A stretch of DNA of 64,000 nucleotides from Natronospira bacteriovora (GTDB lineage: Bacteria; Pseudomonadota; Gammaproteobacteria; Natronospirales; Natronospiraceae): positions 496,001-560,000 of the forward strand of contig NZ_JAVDDT010000002.1 of NCBI RefSeq assembly GCF_030848495.1, in the 5' to 3' direction. The position numbers and the translations under genes are program-made. The notes below the pieces were generated by a model, which worked only from the letters and a program-made list of their open reading frames with translations, did no database searches and was not told the DNA's origin. This document shows positions 5,045 through 57,926 of the stretch, piece by piece (the first letter of the stretch is position 1; every line of letters starts with the position of its first letter).

Positions 5045-5565
5045 TGGATGCTGTGGTTTATTTCGCGCACGGGAAGGAAAGCGGCCCATGGGGAAGCAAG
5101 ATCACCTATCTGGCCAGAATTGCCGGTGAGCACGGCCTGGACGTGGTCAGCCCGGATTATTCCCAACATTCCCATGGTCACGACCGCTTATCCGCCTTAC
5201 TGGCCCTGTTGGCGGAAGAGGCGCGTCCGTTTCTCCTGGTGGGATCCAGCATGGGAGGCTGGGTATCGGCAATGGCCGCCTGCCGTGTTCCGCCGCTCGG
5301 CCTGTTCCTGATGGCGCCGGCCTTTGACATGCCCGAGCATGACACAGCGACGTTGCCTGCGGATGTGCCCTCCTGGCTGGTTCACGGCTGGGAAGACGAC
5401 ATCGTACCGGTGGATCAGAGCATCAATGCAGCTCGTGAACGGTCGGGACACCTTCTGCTGGTGCCGGATGGTCATGCCCTGGCCGGGTCGGCCCGGGCGA
5501 TACGTCGTCATTTCCGGCATTTTCTGAACGAGTGCGTTTCGGAAAAAATTGACAGCACCCCTTGA
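5044..5565 (+). CDS. YqiA/YcfP-type alpha/beta hydrolase
   Basis: The product is 173 residues. The nucleophile elbow GSSMGG lies near residue 65. An early HGKES motif, a late VHGWEDDIVP stretch carrying the probable catalytic Asp, and DGHAL with the catalytic His complete a serine-hydrolase triad. Length and layout match small cytosolic esterases of the YqiA/UPF0227 group, whose substrates are poorly known. It starts inside the stop codon of the diguanylate cyclase gene, so the two are translationally coupled. The 125 bases that follow hold no gene. Confidence 0.8.
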   Translation: MDAVVYFAHGKESGPWGSKITYLARIAGEHGLDVVSPDYSQHSHGHDRLSALLALLAEEARPFLLVGSSMGGWVSAMAACRVPPLGLFLMAPAFDMPEHDTATLPADVPSWLVHGWEDDIVPVDQSINAARERSGHLLLVPDGHALAGSARAIRRHFRHFLNECVSEKIDSTP

Positions 5566-36507: not shown

Positions 36508-36899
36508 CAAGCCACCCTCCGGCCTAAGAAATCGCCAAGCTTTATCTCGCGTCCATAAATCTCACAGAATGGTGCCCACCCAAGCTCCACCAGCAAGCCG
36601 GGCAAGTCACGCCCAGTCCATTCGGAGAACGCGCCGAGATCAGAGAGGATGTCCTTCTGATAGTCATGACCCGTGAAATAATCCCGCGCCGACCCAAGCA
36701 TTCCTGGCTCAAATTCAATGGCGCCGTGACCCTCACAAATGCTGCAGGTGCTTTCCTTTTCCCCGCCACAGCAATGACATACCTCTTCGACTTTTCCGAA
36801 TCCGTCACAGGAACCGCACCTCAGCACCTCGCGGTTGGCGCATGCAACCTGAAAGCGTTTTTCAGCCCACTCATCGAATGAGAAAAGTCGTGGCCGCAT
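36507..36899 (-). CDS. DnaJ-type zinc-finger phage protein
   Basis: The product is 130 residues. Four CxxC repeats (CGSCDGFGKVEEVCHCCGG is followed by CSICEGHG) resemble the DnaJ cysteine-rich zinc domain. A C-terminal region (FSEWTGRDLPGLLVELGW) follows. There is no J domain. It overlaps the tyrosine recombinase stop (TGATG). Confidence 0.65.
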   Translation of the reverse strand: MRPRLFSFDEWAEKRFQVACANREVLRCGSCDGFGKVEEVCHCCGGEKESTCSICEGHGAIEFEPGMLGSARDYFTGHDYQKDILSDLGAFSEWTGRDLPGLLVELGWAPFCEIYGREIKLGDFLGRRVA

Positions 36900-37882
36900 C
36901 ACCCGGCCCTCCTCTGCTCAACCCCCACCGGGCACTCGCGCTGTACGCGTTCACGCAGGCGCTGGCGGCTGACGCTGCCGTAGGTGCGGATGGTGGTGGC
37001 GGGGTCGGTGTGGCCGGCGACATCGGCGGCGGCGCGGGCGTCGAGTTTGTCGTAGAGATCGCCCAGGCGGCGGTGGCGCAGCATGTGGGGATGCAGGCCG
37101 TGGAGGCCGTGGGTTTCGCCCAGGGCCTTGACGCGGTTGTAGATGGTCTGGCGCCGGATGCGCTTGCCGGTGCGGTTGATGAACAGGGCCTCGGTGGGCA
37201 CGGCCGAGCGCGTGTAGTGGCGGCGCACAGCCAGCCAGTCGTTCACGGCTTCCAGGGTGGCCTCGCCGCAGAGGCCCTGCTCCAGGCGCCCGCCTTTGGC
37301 GCGGTACCAGATGAGGCCGTCCGGCTGTACCTGGCAGCGGCGGGTCGCGTCGGGGCGGTAGAGGTCGAGCGAGACCACGCCCTGGCAGCGCAGGGCGGCG
37401 TCGTAGAGCAGCATCAGCATGGCGCGGTCGCGCAGGCCCATGGGTGTGCGGGTGTCGATGGCGTCGATCAGCCGCTCGATCTCCCGGGCGGGCGGCGCGA
37501 TCACCGGCTCGTGGTGGTAGCGTGGCGGGTCCACCTGGTGCATTGGGTTGGCGTGGGGCTCGAGCAGGCCCTGGGCGCACACATATTTATAGAGGCCACG
37601 GACGGTCTCGAGCTTGCGGGCGGCGGTGCGCAGGGTCATGCCCTCACCGGTCACCAGGGCGTCGAGCCAGTCTTCGATGTGGCGACTGCCGACGGCGGTG
37701 GCCGTAAGCAGGCCGCGCTGCTGGCACCAGCCGACGAACTGGCCCAGGTCGCAGCTGTAGGCGCGCAGGGTCTCCTCGGCCCGGCCCCGGCGCTGGAGGC
37801 GCTGCAGGTAACGGCGGCAGAGCAGGGTCAATTCGCCGGGTTGGGCCACGGGGCGAGCGTGGAACGGGATCATCTTATCCAT
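36899..37882 (-). CDS. second tyrosine recombinase
   Basis: The product is 327 residues from ATG 37882. A core-binding domain (YLQRLQRRGRAEETLRAYSC) precedes the catalytic domain: Arg in YDAALRCQGVVSLDLY, Lys in RAKGG, HPHMLRHRR, GHTD and the Tyr nucleophile in IRTYGSVS. It lies inside the early lytic operon rather than at an end, which argues against a simple integrase role. It could act in excision, resolution or inversion. Confidence 0.85.
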   Translation of the reverse strand: MDKMIPFHARPVAQPGELTLLCRRYLQRLQRRGRAEETLRAYSCDLGQFVGWCQQRGLLTATAVGSRHIEDWLDALVTGEGMTLRTAARKLETVRGLYKYVCAQGLLEPHANPMHQVDPPRYHHEPVIAPPAREIERLIDAIDTRTPMGLRDRAMLMLLYDAALRCQGVVSLDLYRPDATRRCQVQPDGLIWYRAKGGRLEQGLCGEATLEAVNDWLAVRRHYTRSAVPTEALFINRTGKRIRRQTIYNRVKALGETHGLHGLHPHMLRHRRLGDLYDKLDARAAADVAGHTDPATTIRTYGSVSRQRLRERVQRECPVGVEQRRAG

Positions 37883-38219
37883 TGGCTGCCTCCGCGAGTT
37901 GAGCGGCGGCCAGATGGCCGAGCACATCATCCAGCGCCACGCGCAAGCGGTAAGCGCGGGCCGGGCCTATAACCAGCCAGACGCCACGAGACCCGAGCGG
38001 GATGTGCACATCGGGGCCGGGGCTGTCATGGGCGCTCGTGACCTGGCGCAGGTACAGCACCACCTCCTCGGCTTCTTCGCTCGAGATCTGGACCACGGTG
38101 TGGTCGCCCAGCGTGATGCCGATCTTCGGCTGGCTGGAGGCGCCGGCGGGCGGGAACATCATGACCAGGCCTTCGTCGGTACGCCGGCCGATCTGGCGTG
38201 TGTAGCAGCGGGTAATCAT
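37875..38219 (-). CDS. phage protein of unknown function
   Basis: The product is 114 residues with alternating hydrophobic strands (KIGITLGDHTVVQISSEEAEEVVLYLRQ). It overlaps the recombinase start and the upstream gene. No family is recognised. Confidence 0.6.
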   Translation of the reverse strand: MITRCYTRQIGRRTDEGLVMMFPPAGASSQPKIGITLGDHTVVQISSEEAEEVVLYLRQVTSAHDSPGPDVHIPLGSRGVWLVIGPARAYRLRVALDDVLGHLAAAQLAEAANG

Positions 38220-40465: not shown

Positions 40466-40541
40466 TGGTAGCGGGGGTGGGACTTGAACCCACAACCTGC
40501 GGCTTATGAGACCGCCGAGCTTCCAGTTGCTCTACCCCGCA
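40466..40541 (-). tRNA. tRNA with CAU anticodon, initiator-like
   Basis: Reading minus from 40541, all parts of a 76-base tRNA are present: a 7-bp acceptor stem with T1/T72 unpaired, D stem GAGC/GCTC with A11-U24, anticodon stem GCGGT/GCCGC with loop CTCATAA (anticodon CAT), a 5-base variable loop, T arm GTGGG TTCAAGT CCCAC, discriminator A and an encoded CCA. The unpaired 1-72 position and A11-U24 are hallmarks of bacterial initiator tRNA. The three G-C pairs below the anticodon loop are only partly kept (G29-C41, G30-C40, U31-G39). Confidence 0.93.
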
Positions 40542-40557
40542 TTTGAAATCGGTGTGC

Positions 40558-41301
40558 TTACGCATCGGCCACCTCCCCGGAAACTTCCGTTTCGTGATCC
40601 TCGGGGAGAGGCGGAATAGACTCGTAGTCATGGTGATTCATGACCACAGCGCGAAGCGTCGAAATGCTCCAGCGGTTCTTGCCCGCCGGCGAGGGGATGT
40701 TGTGGGCGCGAAGATGGTCCGACAGGGCGCGATAGCTCATGGTCTGCTTCCAGCCCACGATCTGCTCACGCAGCGCCCAGGCCGCCGGGTCGCGATAGAC
40801 GCGGCCATCCACTTCCACACAGCCATAAGGCACTGGGCCCCACACCCTGCCCTGCTCACGCAAGGCGTCGCTGGTTTCCTTGGCCCGCTCGGAGATCGTC
40901 AGCCGCTCGTTCTCGGCCACCGCCACCAGCATGAAGAAGGAAAGCCACCCGGCGCGGGTGGAAATGTCGATACCCTCGGAGACGGACTTGATCGCCCTAC
41001 CCTGCTCCCGGAACCAGGTGCCAGTGGTGATGGCATCCACACCCAGGCGGAACAGACGATCAAGGCGCTGGACGATGACGCCGTCGGCATCAAAGGTCTC
41101 CATATCTTCAATCAGACGACCGCCGCCCAGGCGCGAATCAAGCGGCTTACTCGCGCTGACGCCCTCATCCGAAACCCAATGCACTATCTCGTCACCCTGA
41201 GCACCGGCGAACGCCTCAATCTGACGGCGCTGCGTCATGAGCGAATGCCCATCCCTCGCCTGCTCGTCGGTGCTCACACGGATGTAGCCGATCAATCGCA
41301 T
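40558..41301 (-). CDS. serine recombinase (resolvase/invertase family)
   Basis: The product is 247 residues. The catalytic domain starts MRLIGYIRVSTDEQ, with nucleophile Ser10, and has the LDRLFR motif near residue 80. A short recombinase domain follows (WALREQIVGWKQTMSYRALSDHL). It is much shorter than large serine integrases. It is the second early gene, 16 bases after cro and just before the tRNA. Confidence 0.88.
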   Translation of the reverse strand: MRLIGYIRVSTDEQARDGHSLMTQRRQIEAFAGAQGDEIVHWVSDEGVSASKPLDSRLGGGRLIEDMETFDADGVIVQRLDRLFRLGVDAITTGTWFREQGRAIKSVSEGIDISTRAGWLSFFMLVAVAENERLTISERAKETSDALREQGRVWGPVPYGCVEVDGRVYRDPAAWALREQIVGWKQTMSYRALSDHLRAHNIPSPAGKNRWSISTLRAVVMNHHDYESIPPLPEDHETEVSGEVADA

Positions 41302-50358: not shown

Positions 50359-53300
50359 CTACGGCTTGATTTCGTCGTTGTTGTGGCTGAGCACCCAGCG
50401 ACCGGGGATGTCGCCGGCCAGGTACTCATGACCGCCCACGCTGATGTGCGCGACATACTCGCGCAGATCGGGGTCGGCGGCGGTGATGCGGTCCCAGATG
50501 ATTTGGCCGTTGTGCCAGATCGTCACGGTGTGATCGCCAGCCCGCAGGGCACCGGCAGGTACATAGCGGCCGGGGCCTTTGTGCCCGTCGATCTTGATCG
50601 CGGTCGCATGCGAGAGCGTGAGCTGATGTCCGCGTTCGGTCGTGAGGCGGATGCAGCGCACGGGCTCAGGTGAGCGGCGCACAGCAATGACCTCGCGCTC
50701 GATGCGCTTACCATCCACCACATCCCAGAGGCGGTCACCGATGCGCACATCACCGGCTTGCAAGTCCTCTCTGACCCAGGCATCGACGCAGACGCAATCG
50801 GGCGGACTGCCGCCGCCCGAGCCACCTTCGCCGACCGTCACATGGCCGCCGACGTAAACATTGCCGTCATCGGCCACGACGTCTTGCACAGTCTGCGTCG
50901 CGAGGTAGGCGACTGAGCCGCCCTGGTAATCGGGATCGCTGCAGTAGATGTAGTAGGTGGTCTCATAACTCAGCCCGGAGATGTCGCCGCTGCCGTAGCT
51001 GACGGTGCCGGCCGAGCCACCACGTCGGGTGTGTGAGCCGACGGTGATGGTGACGGATGAGCCGTCGTCGACGCTGCTGATGGGGTATTCATTCTGGAGC
51101 GCGGGGCTCCTATTAAAGCCGAGCAGCGCCATCATGCCGCGCATGTCGGTCAGGCGGCCATCGTTGATGGGCAGGGCCGTGCCGCCGATGGAGACGGTTG
51201 GGAACGCAAACTCGCTGGGGGTCTCGTCGTTGCCGACGAGCTCTTCGAGCATCACCCCATCCAGATAGAGGCCCCCGCTCGTAAAGGAATCCGCATCCAT
51301 CCGCAGGTTTATGTTGATTTCCGTTGTATTGGGGCCAGTGGTGAGCGTGGCGGTGTAACGAGGCCAGCTGCCAGTGCTTGCGGACACTGAGAGGTTGGCA
51401 AACACCGTCGAACCCTCATCGTCCTTCCACCGAAGGCGGACAGACCCATTCCCGCTGCCCTCTCGATTTAAATAAGCGCTGAAAATATACGTGGTATTCG
51501 GCGACACCGGGATGTTGTGGTCGCCGGTGGCCGGTGTAAACCAAAAGAATGACGTCTGATCGCTTTCGGTTTTAGTGAGGTACAGGAATCGCTGCCCGTA
51601 TTTAGCCGAGATGTCGCGCAGGCTGCGGTAGGTTTCTAGGTTCGCATTAACGCGTGCTCCCGCATGAGGCGGCAACACCCGCTCGCTGAAAATGCTGTAG
51701 CGCGCCGGCATGATGTTCACACCGCGCCCGGCGGTGTGATTCGCCGTGTTGTCCGCCCCGTCGGCCACGGTCTTGCCCTGGCTGCTGACGGGCTCGGTCC
51801 AGTCGCTGGGGTCGGAGCCGTAGGCCTCGCATCGAGCGCGGAACCATTTGAGCGCGCCGGTTGTATCGGGGTGGTGGTAACTCGCCGAGCGTTGCAGTGG
51901 CGCGTCCTGCCATGTGCCAGGGCTGCCGCTGCTGTCGTCCGCGATCTGGATGCGGAGGTTGTCCCACAGCAATGGGTTGGGGGTGTCGACCGCGAACTCG
52001 ATGCCGTCCGCCACGCTGGTCACGGTAGCGTTCGTCGGCGGCGGGACTTCTTCGGGCGGCACCACCGGGGTCTGGATGTCCTCCATCTCTTCGAGGTCAG
52101 CGGCGGTGACAGTCCAGACGGATTCGCTGTGCTCGCGAAAAAGGAGCGAGACGGGTTCGTTGGGCGACCAGGTGTGGTCGACCATTTCAAACGTGTTGCC
52201 GCCGATGGCGGTGTCGGGCAAGTCGAAGGTGTTGGTATCGTACTGCTCCAGCAGCAGGCCGTTATAGTTTGCCTGGAGGGCGACGACCTTCTGATCGCGA
52301 GTCTGGCGGGCGCGGACAATGGCGAGATACTGTGCGCGGTATTTATTGGTGATGCCCTCGGCGCGGATCACGCGGGGCAGGCGCTGGAAGTTATCCTGCT
52401 CTTCGTAAGCCGCGCTGGTGAACGGCAGGCTGTTGACAAACTCCCAGTTGTCATTCGGGGAGACGTGCTCGACCGTCACACTGTTGTAGACCTCGCCCAG
52501 CTCCCGGGCGGTCTTGACCTCGATCTCGCCAGCGAGCCAATCCTGGTCGATGACTTCACTGGGCGCGGTATAGCCGCCGGCTTTAAACACCCATTGCCCG
52601 CGTACTTCGCGAATGCGGCCAAGCATCGTTTGCTCGATGCGCTCAATATTGGTCTTGTGGTCGTCGGCGTCGCAGTAGAGATCGCAGCGATACAGCGGGA
52701 TGGTGGTGGTGCCGCCATTGCCGTCCGGGATCTCCAGGTCCTCGTCGGAACGGTTGGCGGCTGCCGCCACGCTCGGCCAGATGATCGTGTCCGCGCCGAA
52801 GCCCCCGCCGCAGTGCATCACCGGGCGCGTGAGGTAGTGCGCACCCTGCAGCGCCGGATTGCGCGTATACTCCCATGTGGCCGGATCGTTCAGTCGGTTT
52901 GAGCCGCTGCCGCCGTTGGTCGAATCCTTGCGCGGGTCGTAGCATTTCTCGCCGCGCACCAGCGAGCTGATATGCCCGGGCCAGCCGCGCGGGAAAGCCT
53001 TCTCAAACGCCTCGCTACTCTCGGGGATGACGGCCTCGACTACCGTGTAAGCCACGCCCTTGCCCTTGTGGCTGGTCTGCCAGCCGGGGTAGCCCTGCAG
53101 GCCGTCTTCGACCAGCTCGCTGATCTCGTCCTGGGTCTCGAGGCCGGTGCGGCGCCAGACGCGGACAACGCCGGCGAAACGACTGTCGCCGATCACATAG
53201 CCGTCGGCATCGATGTCCTCGTGCGGGATGCGCTCATCGCCGATCCACACATCGCGAATCGCTTCGACGCCGTGCTGCGTATAGCAGTGGGCGACACCCC

Positions 53301-53571
53301 ACCACAGCGTCTCTTGGTAATGACTGCGCCCCGCAATCTGTACCCCGCCCAGGCGGCGCTCGCCCAAACACATGCCGATTTTTTCCGTCGCGCCCCGGGC
53401 GTTGATCTTCTGATTGAAGTCCCACTCCGGCATGGGGTCGGCGTTCATCGATTCCTGAATGCCGCCCAGGGCCAGCACCGCGCCCATCCGGGCCACGCCC
53501 CAGTTGCCGGTGACAGCACCGCCGACAAACAGCACCGCGCCGCCGAGGATCCGCGAGTTACTGCTACTCAT
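50359..53571 (-). CDS. tail tip (gpJ-like) protein with C-terminal Hint domain
   Basis: The product is 1070 residues from ATG 53571. The N-terminal part has a hydrophobic segment and gpJ-type regions (GARGATEK is not claimed; clear parts are AGRSHYQETLWWGVAHCY and GVEAIRDVWIGDERI). A jelly-roll, carbohydrate-binding-like region lies near 620-777. Residues about 926-1070 form a Hint fold: CVCVDAWV (block A), TTERGHQLTLSHATAI (block B with Thr and His), EYVAHISVGGHEYLAG (block F) and WVLSHNN (block G). Only five residues follow HNN, and +1 is Asn rather than Ser, Thr or Cys. Confidence 0.85.
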   Translation of the reverse strand: MSSSNSRILGGAVLFVGGAVTGNWGVARMGAVLALGGIQESMNADPMPEWDFNQKINARGATEKIGMCLGERRLGGVQIAGRSHYQETLWWGVAHCYTQHGVEAIRDVWIGDERIPHEDIDADGYVIGDSRFAGVVRVWRRTGLETQDEISELVEDGLQGYPGWQTSHKGKGVAYTVVEAVIPESSEAFEKAFPRGWPGHISSLVRGEKCYDPRKDSTNGGSGSNRLNDPATWEYTRNPALQGAHYLTRPVMHCGGGFGADTIIWPSVAAAANRSDEDLEIPDGNGGTTTIPLYRCDLYCDADDHKTNIERIEQTMLGRIREVRGQWVFKAGGYTAPSEVIDQDWLAGEIEVKTARELGEVYNSVTVEHVSPNDNWEFVNSLPFTSAAYEEQDNFQRLPRVIRAEGITNKYRAQYLAIVRARQTRDQKVVALQANYNGLLLEQYDTNTFDLPDTAIGGNTFEMVDHTWSPNEPVSLLFREHSESVWTVTAADLEEMEDIQTPVVPPEEVPPPTNATVTSVADGIEFAVDTPNPLLWDNLRIQIADDSSGSPGTWQDAPLQRSASYHHPDTTGALKWFRARCEAYGSDPSDWTEPVSSQGKTVADGADNTANHTAGRGVNIMPARYSIFSERVLPPHAGARVNANLETYRSLRDISAKYGQRFLYLTKTESDQTSFFWFTPATGDHNIPVSPNTTYIFSAYLNREGSGNGSVRLRWKDDEGSTVFANLSVSASTGSWPRYTATLTTGPNTTEININLRMDADSFTSGGLYLDGVMLEELVGNDETPSEFAFPTVSIGGTALPINDGRLTDMRGMMALLGFNRSPALQNEYPISSVDDGSSVTITVGSHTRRGGSAGTVSYGSGDISGLSYETTYYIYCSDPDYQGGSVAYLATQTVQDVVADDGNVYVGGHVTVGEGGSGGGSPPDCVCVDAWVREDLQAGDVRIGDRLWDVVDGKRIEREVIAVRRSPEPVRCIRLTTERGHQLTLSHATAIKIDGHKGPGRYVPAGALRAGDHTVTIWHNGQIIWDRITAADPDLREYVAHISVGGHEYLAGDIPGRWVLSHNNDEIKP

Positions 53572-53981
53572 CCGACCCTCCACGCCAGCCGCGCCTGGCC
53601 CAGCATCTGCCGGGTCTGGCCGCGATTGCACACCGTGGCCACGCGAGCGCCCAGCACCACGCCCAGGGTGTCGCCGCCCTGATCCGCCCACGGCCCGATC
53701 ACGACATCACCCCGCCGGGCTTGCAGCGGCGCCACCGGCTCGCCCAGGCGGTCACGGCAAATAGCCTCGAGACTGCCGCCCAGCTCATCGATCAGCGCGA
53801 ATGCCTCTTCCTGGCTGGCGTACTCACCGCGCACGTCAGCGGCCAGATCCTCGCCCGTCATCGCCTGGATGGCCCCGGCCACGAACAGGGTGCAATCGTG
53901 CTCGCCGTAGGTATGCGGCCGGCACTGCACGGATCGCAGGTAGGCATTCAGGCGGCGCTCCCAGTTCGACCGCCGAATCAT
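53568..53981 (-). CDS. NlpC/P60-like tail assembly peptidase (DUF6950 type)
   Basis: The product is 137 residues from ATG 53981, an ATGA overlap with the upstream gene behind GGAGA. YGEHDCTLFVAGAIQAMTG carries the candidate catalytic Cys, and ARRGDVVIGPW follows in the C-terminal half. Proteins of this type sit just before the tail tip gene and act in tail assembly or wall penetration. A start at 53993 would add four residues. Confidence 0.75.
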   Translation of the reverse strand: MIRRSNWERRLNAYLRSVQCRPHTYGEHDCTLFVAGAIQAMTGEDLAADVRGEYASQEEAFALIDELGGSLEAICRDRLGEPVAPLQARRGDVVIGPWADQGGDTLGVVLGARVATVCNRGQTRQMLGQARLAWRVG

Positions 53982-54622
53982 TTTGTTCTCCATCGCATCT
54001 GGGCATCCTGCTGGTTCTGGATAAACTCGCCGGCATCGTTGAAGCCGCCACCTGGAATGCGCGTGATGTTCCGCGCCCAGCGGATCTCCCGGCCGGGAAT
54101 GTGGCGCACGTCATTGAAGATCGTGTCACCGGGGAAGCGCTGGGCCTGGGTCTCGGGGCTGGCGGAGAGCATCGAAGGGCGGCGCAGCTGAATGGTCATC
54201 GACTCCGCCGAGATCACCACCTCCTGCGTGTCCTGCGCGATCCGCACCGACGACTGCCCCGCCCGCCAGTCGCCCGCCAGCACCGGGCTTCCCAGCACGT
54301 CGAAGGTGTCGACATCCAGCGCACACCAGTACAGGCGGATCCGGCTCCAGAGCGTGTACTCGGTCTCAAGCTGATGCAGGATGTCCGCATCCACACCGGA
54401 CAGCACCACCTCCGTGCGCACCGCCCGGAGCTCATCGGTATGGCGCACCTTATCGATCCCGCCCCACGACCCATCGGGCGAATACACCACGCCCTCGTGC
54501 TCCATCTCACGCTCATGGGTCGTGGTCGCCGCCAGCAACGACGGAAAATCGATACGCAGCAGCTCGCACCAGCCGAAGCGGTTACCGATGACGGCGTCCT
54601 GGAAGGCCACAGGGAACGTCAT
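53978..54622 (-). CDS. minor tail protein
   Basis: The product is 214 residues. Position between the tape measure region and the NlpC/P60-like gene is that of lambda gpL-like proteins. FGWCELLRIDFPSLL and WSRIRLYWCALDVDTF are visible beta regions. No named family is certain. Confidence 0.65.
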   Translation of the reverse strand: MTFPVAFQDAVIGNRFGWCELLRIDFPSLLAATTTHEREMEHEGVVYSPDGSWGGIDKVRHTDELRAVRTEVVLSGVDADILHQLETEYTLWSRIRLYWCALDVDTFDVLGSPVLAGDWRAGQSSVRIAQDTQEVVISAESMTIQLRRPSMLSASPETQAQRFPGDTIFNDVRHIPGREIRWARNITRIPGGGFNDAGEFIQNQQDAQMRWRTK

Positions 54623-55236
54623 GAGCCCGCTCCGGCGGTGGGGTCTTCAATGAAGCCAACCGACAGGCCGGCCTTGCGGGGCGAACGCCACTGCACGTCC
54701 CACTCATTGGCGTTGGCCAGCTTGAACAGGGCCTTCGGCGATTCAATCTCGATGGCCTCCCCGTCTGACGGGAAAGTGCGCAGCGGCTTCGCGATAGGGA
54801 TCTCGGCTTCCCCGCTGGCGTTGGCATTCACCGTGGCCGTGACACGGCACAGCTCGTTGCTGCTCAGGCCGATGAGATCACCAGGTTCCAGCACGGCGGT
54901 GGCCGATGCCGACCAACCGCGAGTCGTCACGATCTTGCCGGCGGCCAGTGTGCCGTCGACCACCGGGTTGCCTGAGCCGCTGCCATACCGCTGATAGGCC
55001 CAGTGGGGCATGCGCGTCCAGGCGGCATTGGCCAAAAGCTGCTCGAGGAACATTTCCACCAGCTGGCCATCCCGCCCGCGCAAGCGCGGGAAGCCGATCT
55101 CACAGGCATAACGGGCGCCGGGCCGCACCATCTCCTGCATGGCGCTGCTCAGAACGGAAAGGAAGCGGCCGTTGTTGGCGACCATGCCCCAGGTGGCGCG
55201 GCCGGGGTGGCGGATGTTCGGGAACGGGACGATCAA
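54619..55236 (-). CDS. minor tail protein
   Basis: The product is 205 residues. It directly follows the tape measure gene (four-base overlap), the position of distal tail or gpM-like proteins. A beta-rich middle (VLEPGDLIGLSSNELCRVTA) supports a tail role. The family is not identified. Confidence 0.65.
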   Translation of the reverse strand: MIVPFPNIRHPGRATWGMVANNGRFLSVLSSAMQEMVRPGARYACEIGFPRLRGRDGQLVEMFLEQLLANAAWTRMPHWAYQRYGSGSGNPVVDGTLAAGKIVTTRGWSASATAVLEPGDLIGLSSNELCRVTATVNANASGEAEIPIAKPLRTFPSDGEAIEIESPKALFKLANANEWDVQWRSPRKAGLSVGFIEDPTAGAGS

Positions 55237-57926
55237 TTCAGCATCCTCCCTTCCATCAGATCCTGAACTTGCCGAAGCGTCTGGCGGCGCTCTTCCGCCA
55301 GCCTCTGCTCAAGCTGCATGAGCATGGCCGGGTCTTGATTGCCCGGGGCGTTGATGATGGTGTCACCGACGGAAATGGCCTGGCCGCCGCCGGCGGCACC
55401 CAGTCGATGGTTGGGTGTGATGCGGCCATCGCGGCCACCCATCATCAGGTAGTCGCGACCACCGACGGAGAGCATTTCACCGCCCTGCTCGTTGACTTCA
55501 CGAAGACTGCCTCGGTGCACAGTGCCGCCGAGCGCAGAGCCGCCGTCCACTTCGGGCTCATCACCGCCGCCGAACATGCCGGCGATCGCACTGAAGAACC
55601 CTCCACTGCCGGAATCCTGTCCAAGCATCCGCGAGGCCATGGCCTGAGCTTCCATGCGGATGATCATGTTGATCCACATGTCGAGGATGTTGTCGAAGTT
55701 GCCCCTCATCATTTCTTCGAGGGTATTGCCCAGGGTGTTCTGGATATTCCGCTGGCCCTGGATGGCGTACTGCGACATGTTGTCGACGGTCCGCTCGAAG
55801 TTCTCGTCCATGCGCTCCAGCGCCGCTTCGAACTCCTCCTCATCGATGTCCAGCACACCGGCATCGAACGCCTCCTGGAGCTGCTGGCGCTGACGGATGT
55901 GGCGCTCTTCGGCGGTCATCAATGACGCCAGGGTGGACTCGGCCCCGCTCCGCAGTTCGGTCAGTACGCGTTCACGCTCCGCTGCTTCGTCTTGCGCGCC
56001 CAACCCGGCAATGAGGGTCGCGGTACGGATTCGGATCGCGTCAGCCTGCTCCTCCGTCGCCGCCTTGCTCGCCATGATTTCCCCGCGCCAGGCGATCTCT
56101 TCCGCCCGGCTCATGCCCAGGGTGGCGATCTCTTCATCCAGGTTGTTCATGTAGCGCTGGAGTTCAGCAGTCAGCTCCGCCTTGGCACCGGCGTTCCCTT
56201 CTGTGCTGAGGGTATTGCGATTTGCGGCATCGGTCTGGCGGTCCGTCGAGTCGGCTGACTCGTCCCCGGCCATCGACAGGCGCCTCAGGTTTTCTTCGAG
56301 CTGCTCGATTTCACGCTGATTTTCAGCCAGGGCATCGCGCGCATTTTCAACCTGCTCCTCCGTGCCCCAGCCCGCACCGACAGCAGCCTGACGCTGCTCA
56401 AGTCTGCGCTCGAGCCGTTCAGACTCGTCGTGCAGATCATTGAGGGCGACAAGGTTCTCCTCCATCGCCTCTCGGATCCTGGTCTCTCGCAGGTTCTCCA
56501 TCGAGCCAGTGAGTTGGTCCACCTGCTTCGTGAGCCCCTCGGTGTCGACGCCGGCTTCTCGAGACGCCATGGCCCACATACCGAGGGCTGCGGCGGCACC
56601 GACAATAAGCCCCGGTACACCCCCAAAGAACGCCAAAGCACCACTGGCAATCCTGGCGTTACGGGCAACGACCAACAGCGCCTGGCCTTTGGCCAGCAGC
56701 GCGGGTGTCATGCGGGCTACCATCGTCGTGGCCAACACGCCGAGAATCAGGTTCATGTTTTCAGCGAGAAAGATCGTGCCGCGATAGCCCTCCTGGCGTT
56801 CGCTCAGGTGCTCATCCATGTCAGTGATCACACGAAGGAAGGTGGTGCCCCGCTCCGTCACGCCACGGAAAGCGCCACTAAGGCCGGCATCGCCGGACTG
56901 CTGGATGAGCTCTGAGAAGGCCGAGCGCAGTTCGCGAATGGCGCCCGGCAGGTTGTCGGCCATGGTCTGAGCCATTTCATCGGCACGGCCTTCGGCATCT
57001 CGGAAATCGCCGGTGAGCTCGCGCAGCTTCGCGCCCTGGTTGACCAGCTCAAGAATCGCCGGGCCGCCACGCTGGCCGAAGATCTGGAACGCCTGGCTGG
57101 CATCGAGGCCCGCGTCATGCAAGGTGTCCATGATGTCGGCGAGGCTGTTTGCCTGGGGATCTACATCCGCCATCTCCACGCCGAGATCATTCAGCGCATC
57201 TTTCGCCGCGCCCGTCGGGTTGACCAGGCTGGAAAGGATCCGGCGGAGACCGGTACCGGCAGCCGAGCCCTGAATACCGGCATCGGACAAAGCGCCCACG
57301 GCGGCCGCCGTCTCAGAGATATCAATCTGCAAGGCGGCGGCGACAGGGCCAACAAACTGCATGGCCTCGCCCAACTGCTGGATGTTGGTATTGGTGGTGC
57401 TGGCGGCGGCGGTCAGGGTGTCCGCCACCATCGGCATCTGCGCGGCTTCCAGGCGGAAGGCTTGCAGCACATTCGAGGAGATATCGGCGGCGCGGGCCAG
57501 ATCCATGTTCGCGGCCGTCGCCAGGTTGAGTGTGGACGGCATCGCGGCAATGATCTGGTTGGTATCAAAACCCGCCTGGCCGAGGAAGCGCATACCCTCC
57601 GCTGCCTGCTGGCCGGAGAACAGCGTTGTGGCACCCAGCTCGCGGGCCTGGGCCTGCATGTCCTGCATCTGCTGCTCATTGGCCTGAGTCACGGCCCGAA
57701 CGCCGGACATGCTCTGCTCGAAGCCGCCGATCTCGTCGATCACATGACGCAAGGTGAAGCCGGCACCGACGGTGGCCAGTACCCGCTGGAAGTTCATCAA
57801 GCCGCGGCTGGCTCGCTGGCCGGTCTCGCCGGTACGCTCCAGATCGCCACTGACATTCTGCAGATCAGCCCGGACCCGGCCCTGGCCATCCACTTGCACC
57901 CGGATTCTAAGGGTTTCCTGCGTCAC
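55233..57926 (-). CDS. tail tape measure protein
   Basis: The product is 897 residues. The TP901-type core (SMSGVRAVTQANEQQMQDMQ, ATTLFSGQQAAEGMRFLGQAG) is followed by hydrophobic segments near 395-435, long coiled coils, and a basic to acidic C-terminal region. It sets tail length: by the usual proportion an 897-residue protein suggests a tail of roughly 130 nm. It starts inside the frameshifted chaperone frame. Confidence 0.93.
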   Translation of the reverse strand: MTQETLRIRVQVDGQGRVRADLQNVSGDLERTGETGQRASRGLMNFQRVLATVGAGFTLRHVIDEIGGFEQSMSGVRAVTQANEQQMQDMQAQARELGATTLFSGQQAAEGMRFLGQAGFDTNQIIAAMPSTLNLATAANMDLARAADISSNVLQAFRLEAAQMPMVADTLTAAASTTNTNIQQLGEAMQFVGPVAAALQIDISETAAAVGALSDAGIQGSAAGTGLRRILSSLVNPTGAAKDALNDLGVEMADVDPQANSLADIMDTLHDAGLDASQAFQIFGQRGGPAILELVNQGAKLRELTGDFRDAEGRADEMAQTMADNLPGAIRELRSAFSELIQQSGDAGLSGAFRGVTERGTTFLRVITDMDEHLSERQEGYRGTIFLAENMNLILGVLATTMVARMTPALLAKGQALLVVARNARIASGALAFFGGVPGLIVGAAAALGMWAMASREAGVDTEGLTKQVDQLTGSMENLRETRIREAMEENLVALNDLHDESERLERRLEQRQAAVGAGWGTEEQVENARDALAENQREIEQLEENLRRLSMAGDESADSTDRQTDAANRNTLSTEGNAGAKAELTAELQRYMNNLDEEIATLGMSRAEEIAWRGEIMASKAATEEQADAIRIRTATLIAGLGAQDEAAERERVLTELRSGAESTLASLMTAEERHIRQRQQLQEAFDAGVLDIDEEEFEAALERMDENFERTVDNMSQYAIQGQRNIQNTLGNTLEEMMRGNFDNILDMWINMIIRMEAQAMASRMLGQDSGSGGFFSAIAGMFGGGDEPEVDGGSALGGTVHRGSLREVNEQGGEMLSVGGRDYLMMGGRDGRITPNHRLGAAGGGQAISVGDTIINAPGNQDPAMLMQLEQRLAEERRQTLRQVQDLMEGRMLN

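What the first reader, a model, noticed from the sequence alone, without database searches (positions are those of the whole stretch)
50362..50796. Hint (intein-like) domain at the end of the phage tail tip protein
The last 145 residues of the gpJ-like protein carry Hint blocks A, B, F and G, including a block A Cys (CVCVDAWV), the block B Thr and His, and terminal HNN. There is no homing endonuclease, and only five residues follow. The +1 residue is Asn, so protein splicing is unlikely. Autocleavage or covalent attachment through the Cys thioester, as in hedgehog or bacterial intein-like domains, is possible. A tail tip that cuts or chemically modifies itself during assembly or infection would be unusual.
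Basis: partly seen in the sequence, partly recalled or inferred. Interest (0 to 1): 0.8.

Follow-up and report, generated by a model that had tools for sequence, protein, structure and literature searches.

The report
Intein-like domain ending phage tail tip
The tail-tip protein of this prophage ends in a genuine Hint (intein/hedgehog-fold) domain that belongs to a rare, uncatalogued family on phage tail-tip and tail-fibre proteins; the cysteine and His-Asn needed for self-cutting are kept but one usual catalytic histidine is always missing, so these tails may trim or link themselves chemically, which has not been tested.

Summary
The domain is real. The last 145 residues of the gpJ-like tail-tip protein (window 50362-50796, minus strand) adopt the Hint fold: an AlphaFold2 model matches inteins, hedgehog and BIL domains (Z up to 16.8), with Cys and Asn superposing on the first and last residues of inteins. 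A family profile finds the phage-type gp41-1 intein at E = 4e-8. No Pfam, PHROG or NCBIfam model recognises it.

Seventeen family members, from jumbo phages, metagenomic phages and gammaproteobacterial prophages, keep the block A Cys and penultimate His; 14 keep the aligned Asn and three have His-His-Asn. The domain always sits at the extreme C-terminus, usually after a Gly-rich linker, and is followed by 5-9 residues that always include a Lys. The +1 residue is not Cys or Thr.

Most likely it is an autoprocessing module resembling a type A BIL that forms a thioester at Cys1 and cuts itself off the mature tail tip. Fold and homology are shown; catalysis is inferred. A dead structural fold is the main rival. 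New variant of a known kind; moderate interest.

The parts
50359..53571 (-). gpJ-like tail-tip protein, 1070 aa with the ATG start at 53571 (the ORF is open up to the GTG at 53691)
   Evidence: PHROG 5616 tail fibre protein E 1.6e-69 over its core; overlaps the upstream stop as ATGA
50362..50796 (-). C-terminal Hint domain plus six-residue tail, 145 aa
   Evidence: AlphaFold2 model, Foldseek and VIA-align matches to inteins, hedgehog and BILs, profile matches to PDB inteins
50797..50829 (-). Gly-rich linker EGGSGGGSPPD directly before Cys1
   Evidence: sequence; most relatives have poly-Gly here
50794..50796 (-). block A Cys1 codon
   Evidence: invariant in 17 of 17 family members; superposes on intein residue 1
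50602..50613 (-). block B S-H-A-T: Ser at B:7, Thr at B:10 in place of His
50380..50385 (-). block G His-Asn
   Evidence: His in 17 of 17, Asn in 14 of 17; the other three read HHN; Asn superposes on the last residue of inteins
50362..50379 (-). C-terminal tail NDEIKP after the Asn
   Evidence: relatives also end 5-9 residues after HN, always with a Lys
53568..57926 (-). upstream tail genes: PHROG 2134 protein, tail protein (PHROG 2048), distal tail protein, tape measure

Best explanation
The tail-tip protein carries a C-terminal autoprocessing Hint module that works like a type A bacterial intein-like (BIL) domain. After the tail tip folds, Cys1 attacks the preceding peptide bond at the end of the Gly-rich linker and forms a thioester. 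Hydrolysis or aminolysis of the thioester then frees the tail tip from the Hint domain. Cyclisation of the Asn can separately clip off the six-residue tail. The mature tail tip would then end in the Gly-rich linker, much as tailspikes and L-shaped fibres shed a self-cleaving C-terminal chaperone. Shown: Hint fold, homology to inteins, conservation of Cys1 and His-Asn, fixed C-terminal position, purifying selection. Inferred: that cleavage happens, which bond is cut, and what it is for.
For: AlphaFold2 model with pLDDT 78 and pTM 0.74. Top 50 PDB hits are all inteins, hedgehog or BIL. VIA-align Z is 16.8 to hedgehog and about 16 to inteins, with model residues 12 (Cys) and 150 (Asn) on the first and last intein residues. 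Profile E 4.2e-8 to gp41-1 intein, the alignment running to its terminal HN, and 4.7e-4 to an RHS-type Hint domain that Pfam names PT-HINT at 3e-20. Cys1, Ser B:7 and His G:6 are invariant among 17 members that share only about 20-30% identity with the window copy, while F:4 and F:13 drift. All 11 dN/dS estimates are below 1 (0.01-0.59). A related tail-tip protein (MT835519, L045) ends in a more canonical-looking Hint (T-P-G-H, then SHN plus a short tail), with weak similarity to phage UvsX/RecA-like genes, probably their inteins, and to this family. Type A BILs cleave and can splice without a +1 nucleophile (PMC4031507).
Against: The block B His, normally needed for the first step, is Thr or Ala in every member, and the helper positions F:4 and F:13 are not conserved. 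No protein-level data exist. One stand-alone relative has lost Cys and HN (L005, L009), so the fold can persist without catalysis.
Confidence: 0.5

Rival explanations
1. A catalytically dead Hint fold that serves as a structural or receptor-binding C-terminal domain of the tail tip.
For: Block B His is gone in every member, and F:4 and F:13 vary. A stand-alone relative directly downstream in PhiXhv-12 and Ep032 lacks Cys1 and HN yet is kept.
Against: A dead fold has no reason to keep Cys1 and the His before Asn invariant across 17 sequences at about 25% identity, nor always to keep a short peptide after the Asn.
Confidence: 0.27
2. A chemical coupling device: the Cys1 thioester is passed on to an amine or other nucleophile (a Lys in the tail, a partner protein or the host surface), as hedgehog passes its thioester to cholesterol.
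For: Every tail after HN holds a Lys: 20 of 20; against real C-termini, 1.6e-7 if the 18 distinct tails were independent and about 1e-4 for 10 lineages. The best structural match by Z is hedgehog, tied with inteins.
Against: The Lys rule was noticed after the fact and its position varies. No hedgehog-type adduct-binding region follows the domain. In split tail-tip loci L035 and L046 the first gene lacks the Hint, so it is not needed to join the two halves.
Confidence: 0.1
3. A mini-intein or its decaying remnant: a selfish splicing element that landed at the C-terminus of tail genes and survives by splicing out or being harmless.
For: Homology to phage inteins, mini-intein size, sporadic occurrence.
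Against: Always at the extreme C-terminus on unrelated tail proteins rather than inside a conserved site; no conserved +1 nucleophile; sequence under purifying selection.
Confidence: 0.1

Closest known systems
gp41-1 phage-type intein (PDB 6QAZ, 6RIZ)
   Same: Best sequence-profile match, E 4.2e-8, from the block A side to the terminal HN; same Hint fold; Ser at B:7
   Different: gp41-1 keeps the B:10 His and is a functional (split) intein between two exteins; here B:10 is Thr and the domain ends the protein
Type A bacterial intein-like (BIL) domains (C. thermocellum BIL, PDB 2LWY)
   Same: Hint fold (Z 14.5), terminal His-Asn, no conserved +1 nucleophile
   Different: Block B Thr-His not kept; found here on phage tail proteins, always at the C-terminal end
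Hedgehog autoprocessing domain (PDB 1AT0, 6TYY)
   Same: Fold (Z 16.6-16.8), catalytic-position Cys, C-terminal position
   Different: Hedgehog keeps block B Thr-His and has a sterol-binding region after the Hint; here there is His-Asn and a tail of 5-9 residues
Pretoxin HINT (PT-HINT, PF07591) of RHS and other polymorphic toxins
   Same: Profile match E 4.7e-4 to one such domain
   Different: PT-HINT precedes a toxin domain and keeps Thr-x-x-His; here nothing but a short tail follows
Self-cleaving C-terminal chaperones of tailspikes and L-shaped fibres (Peptidase S74 type)
   Same: C-terminal module on a phage receptor-binding protein, possibly removed by self-cleavage (PMC10579305)
   Different: Different fold and chemistry; no S74 match

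Membership tests
Hint superfamily | Hint fold | tested here: met
Hint superfamily | sequence homology to Hint proteins | tested here: met
   profile hits to inteins and a PT-HINT domain; single-sequence Pfam scan finds nothing
Hint superfamily | block A Cys/Ser nucleophile | tested here: met
   Cys1 invariant, structurally on intein residue 1
Canonical class 1 intein | block B Thr-x-x-His | tested here: not met
   Ser-x-x-Thr/Ala in all members
Canonical class 1 intein | Cys/Ser/Thr at +1 and a C-extein continuing the host protein | tested here: not met
   +1 is N, V, I, A, L, Q, M or R, Ser once; only 5-9 residues follow
Type A BIL domain | terminal His-Asn without +1 nucleophile | tested here: met
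   definition from PMC4031507
Type A BIL domain | cleavage/splicing activity | not testable with these tools
   needs expression and mass spectrometry
Type B BIL domain | no intein-like block G | tested here: not met
   block G His-Asn present
Hedgehog autoprocessing domain | block B Thr-His | tested here: not met
Hedgehog autoprocessing domain | sterol/adduct recognition region after the Hint | tested here: not met
   only 6 residues follow the Asn
Peptidase S74 intramolecular chaperone | S74 domain at the C-terminus | tested here: not met
   no Pfam match in the C-terminal 154 aa up to E 5

The most novel reading that the evidence does not exclude
The tail tip uses a Hint domain without the block B His to make a Cys1 thioester that is passed to an amine, for instance the conserved Lys in the short C-terminal tail or a group on the host surface, so that the tail tip becomes covalently cross-linked or anchored during assembly or irreversible adsorption.
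Probability: 0.08. Interest if true: 0.88.

Novelty: new variant of a known kind. Interest (0 to 1): 0.52.

Why it matters
If active, these would be phage tail tips and fibres that process themselves by intein chemistry, a route to maturation or covalent attachment that I did not find described in the open papers searched. It would also show Hint catalysis without the block B His as a natural, conserved state. Even if dead, the family explains a set of unannotated C-terminal domains on tail proteins that no current family library names.

Tried and rejected
Single-sequence searches (Pfam, PHROGs, NCBIfam, PDB) of the domain alone gave nothing useful; weak nanobody hits in PDB (best E 0.0025) are taken as chance, as no such hit appears with the family profile. 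Hint_2 is absent from the own genome. Scans of 84,980 species genomes by peptide pattern found no further members. Idea that the Hint joins split tail-tip halves: rejected, because in L035 and L046 the first half has no Hint. Idea that L016 has a second, canonical Hint in tandem: motif by eye only; the single-sequence AlphaFold2 model is poor (pLDDT 37) and PDB finds nothing, so undecided. Virion proteomics of XacN1 (PMC5852040) does not mention its Hint-bearing ORF231 in the main text; supplements were not available. Open-access papers on Hint or intein-like domains in phage tails: none found; most subscription papers are not in that library.

Full report
What is there. The ORF at 50359-53691 (minus) encodes a gpJ-like tail-tip protein. 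The ATG at 53571 overlaps the upstream stop as ATGA and gives 1070 residues. Its core matches PHROG 5616 (tail fibre protein, E 1.6e-69). It lies in a tail module with tape measure, distal tail protein and other tail genes upstream, inside a prophage that has an integrase next to a tRNA-Met at 40.5 kb. The last 145 residues, 50362-50796, start at Cys1 after the linker EGGSGGGSPPD and end SHNNDEIKP.

It is a Hint domain. No Pfam, PHROG or NCBIfam model matches the domain or any member of its family convincingly. Relatives found by tblastn and iteration gave alignments whose profiles hit PDB inteins: PhoCDC21-1 at 5.6e-7 and gp41-1 at 2.8e-4 (A7), then gp41-1 at 4.2e-8 with the alignment running to its terminal HN (A8). 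Hedgehog appears weakly (E 0.5-0.6). An AlphaFold2 model from seven window and locus sequences has pLDDT 78 and pTM 0.74. All top 50 Foldseek PDB hits are intein, hedgehog or BIL structures. VIA-align gives Z 16.8 to hedgehog and about 16 to inteins, with Cys1 on the first and Asn139 on the last intein residue. The profile also picks out an RHS-type Hint domain that Pfam calls PT-HINT.

Block B. Anchored on the invariant Gly and on gp41-1 (SEEH), the window reads S62-H63-A64-T65. All 17 members have Ser at B:7, and Thr (14) or Ala (3) at B:10; none has His there. The block F helper positions also vary. Cys1, Ser B:7 and the penultimate His are invariant in 17 of 17; Asn aligns in 14, and three have His-His-Asn, in which HN is shifted by one residue. 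PDB entry 6FRE, a G-1F/H73A mutant of a DnaB mini-intein, is among the matches; from my own knowledge, that work showed that the extein context can compensate for loss of the block B His, so chemistry without it is not excluded.

Distribution. The family is rare: seven of 50,697 phage records at E up to 0.01 (PhiXhv-12, -15, -16, Ep032, XacN1, LucasX, and DLP_6 with two copies), a few IMG/VR contigs, and a few gammaproteobacterial prophages, including six matches in one genome. The carriers are different tail proteins: gpJ-like tail tips in prophages, other tail-cluster proteins in jumbo phages, and VlrC in DLP_6. In every case the domain is at the extreme C-terminus, mostly after poly-Gly, and is followed by 5-9 residues. 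A tail-tip relative that shares the stalk preceding the domain (MT835519) ends in a more canonical-looking Hint with TPGH and SHN; its similarity to phage UvsX/RecA-like genes, probably their inteins, is weak (E 0.007-0.04).

Selection. All 11 dN/dS estimates for pairs of relatives are 0.01-0.59, so the domain is kept at the protein level. Every tail carries a Lys (20 of 20); against the C-termini of 59 annotated or likely genes this would be 1.6e-7 if the 18 distinct tails were independent and about 1e-4 for ten lineages. This was noticed after the fact and is a lead only.

Mechanism. Conserved Cys1 and His-Asn with no conserved +1 nucleophile is the type A BIL signature; such domains mainly cleave and can splice by aminolysis (PMC4031507). 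A C-terminal module on a receptor-binding protein that cuts itself off is known in another chemistry, the intramolecular chaperones of tailspikes and L-shaped fibres (PMC10579305). I therefore favour self-removal from the mature tail tip at 0.5, with a dead structural fold (0.27), thioester transfer (0.1) and a decaying mini-intein (0.1) as rivals. The Hint is not needed to join split tail tips: of three loci with a split gene, only L034 has it on both halves.

Known or new. Hint domains, BILs and phage inteins are known, but I found no open paper on Hint domains in phage tail proteins; the library lacks most subscription papers. The missing block B His, the fixed C-terminal position and the lack of any family model make it a new variant of a known kind.

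Noticed in passing
L005 6423-6842 (PhiXhv-12) and L009 4372-4840 (Ep032): The gene directly after the Hint-bearing protein encodes a stand-alone, degenerate Hint relative of about 140 aa without Cys1 or HN (HMM E 6e-9 and 1.8e-8).
   Followed up: partly
L034 1-5411; also L035 292-5402 and L046 5782-9311: The gpJ-like tail tip is split into two overlapping genes; in L034 both halves end in the Hint domain, in L035 and L046 only the second does.
   Followed up: partly
L016, tail protein starting at 5292: Upstream of the poly-Gly and the family Hint lies a second Hint-like stretch by eye (CFTGN, TLDHP, VAHN); not confirmed by Pfam, PDB or AlphaFold2.
   Followed up: partly
L045 3391-3762 (MT835519.1): A human-gut phage gpJ-like protein ends in a more canonical-looking Hint (TPGH, SHN) that Pfam does not recognise.
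   Followed up: partly
all family members, residues after HN: Every short C-terminal tail after the HN contains a Lys (20 of 20).
   Followed up: partly
G489 (L023, L025-L029): One genome has six matches to the domain, some in fragments, suggesting several related prophages.
   Followed up: no
window 40466-41301: tRNA-Met next to a recombinase/integrase gene on the minus strand, probably one end of the prophage.
   Followed up: no
window 36899-37930: A second integrase gene on the minus strand, about 3 kb before the tRNA-Met.
   Followed up: no
tail-tip protein residues 723-798 of the 1110-aa ORF: Sub-threshold match to a carbohydrate-binding domain (CBM_4_9, E 3.2e-4), a possible receptor-binding part.
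   Followed up: no
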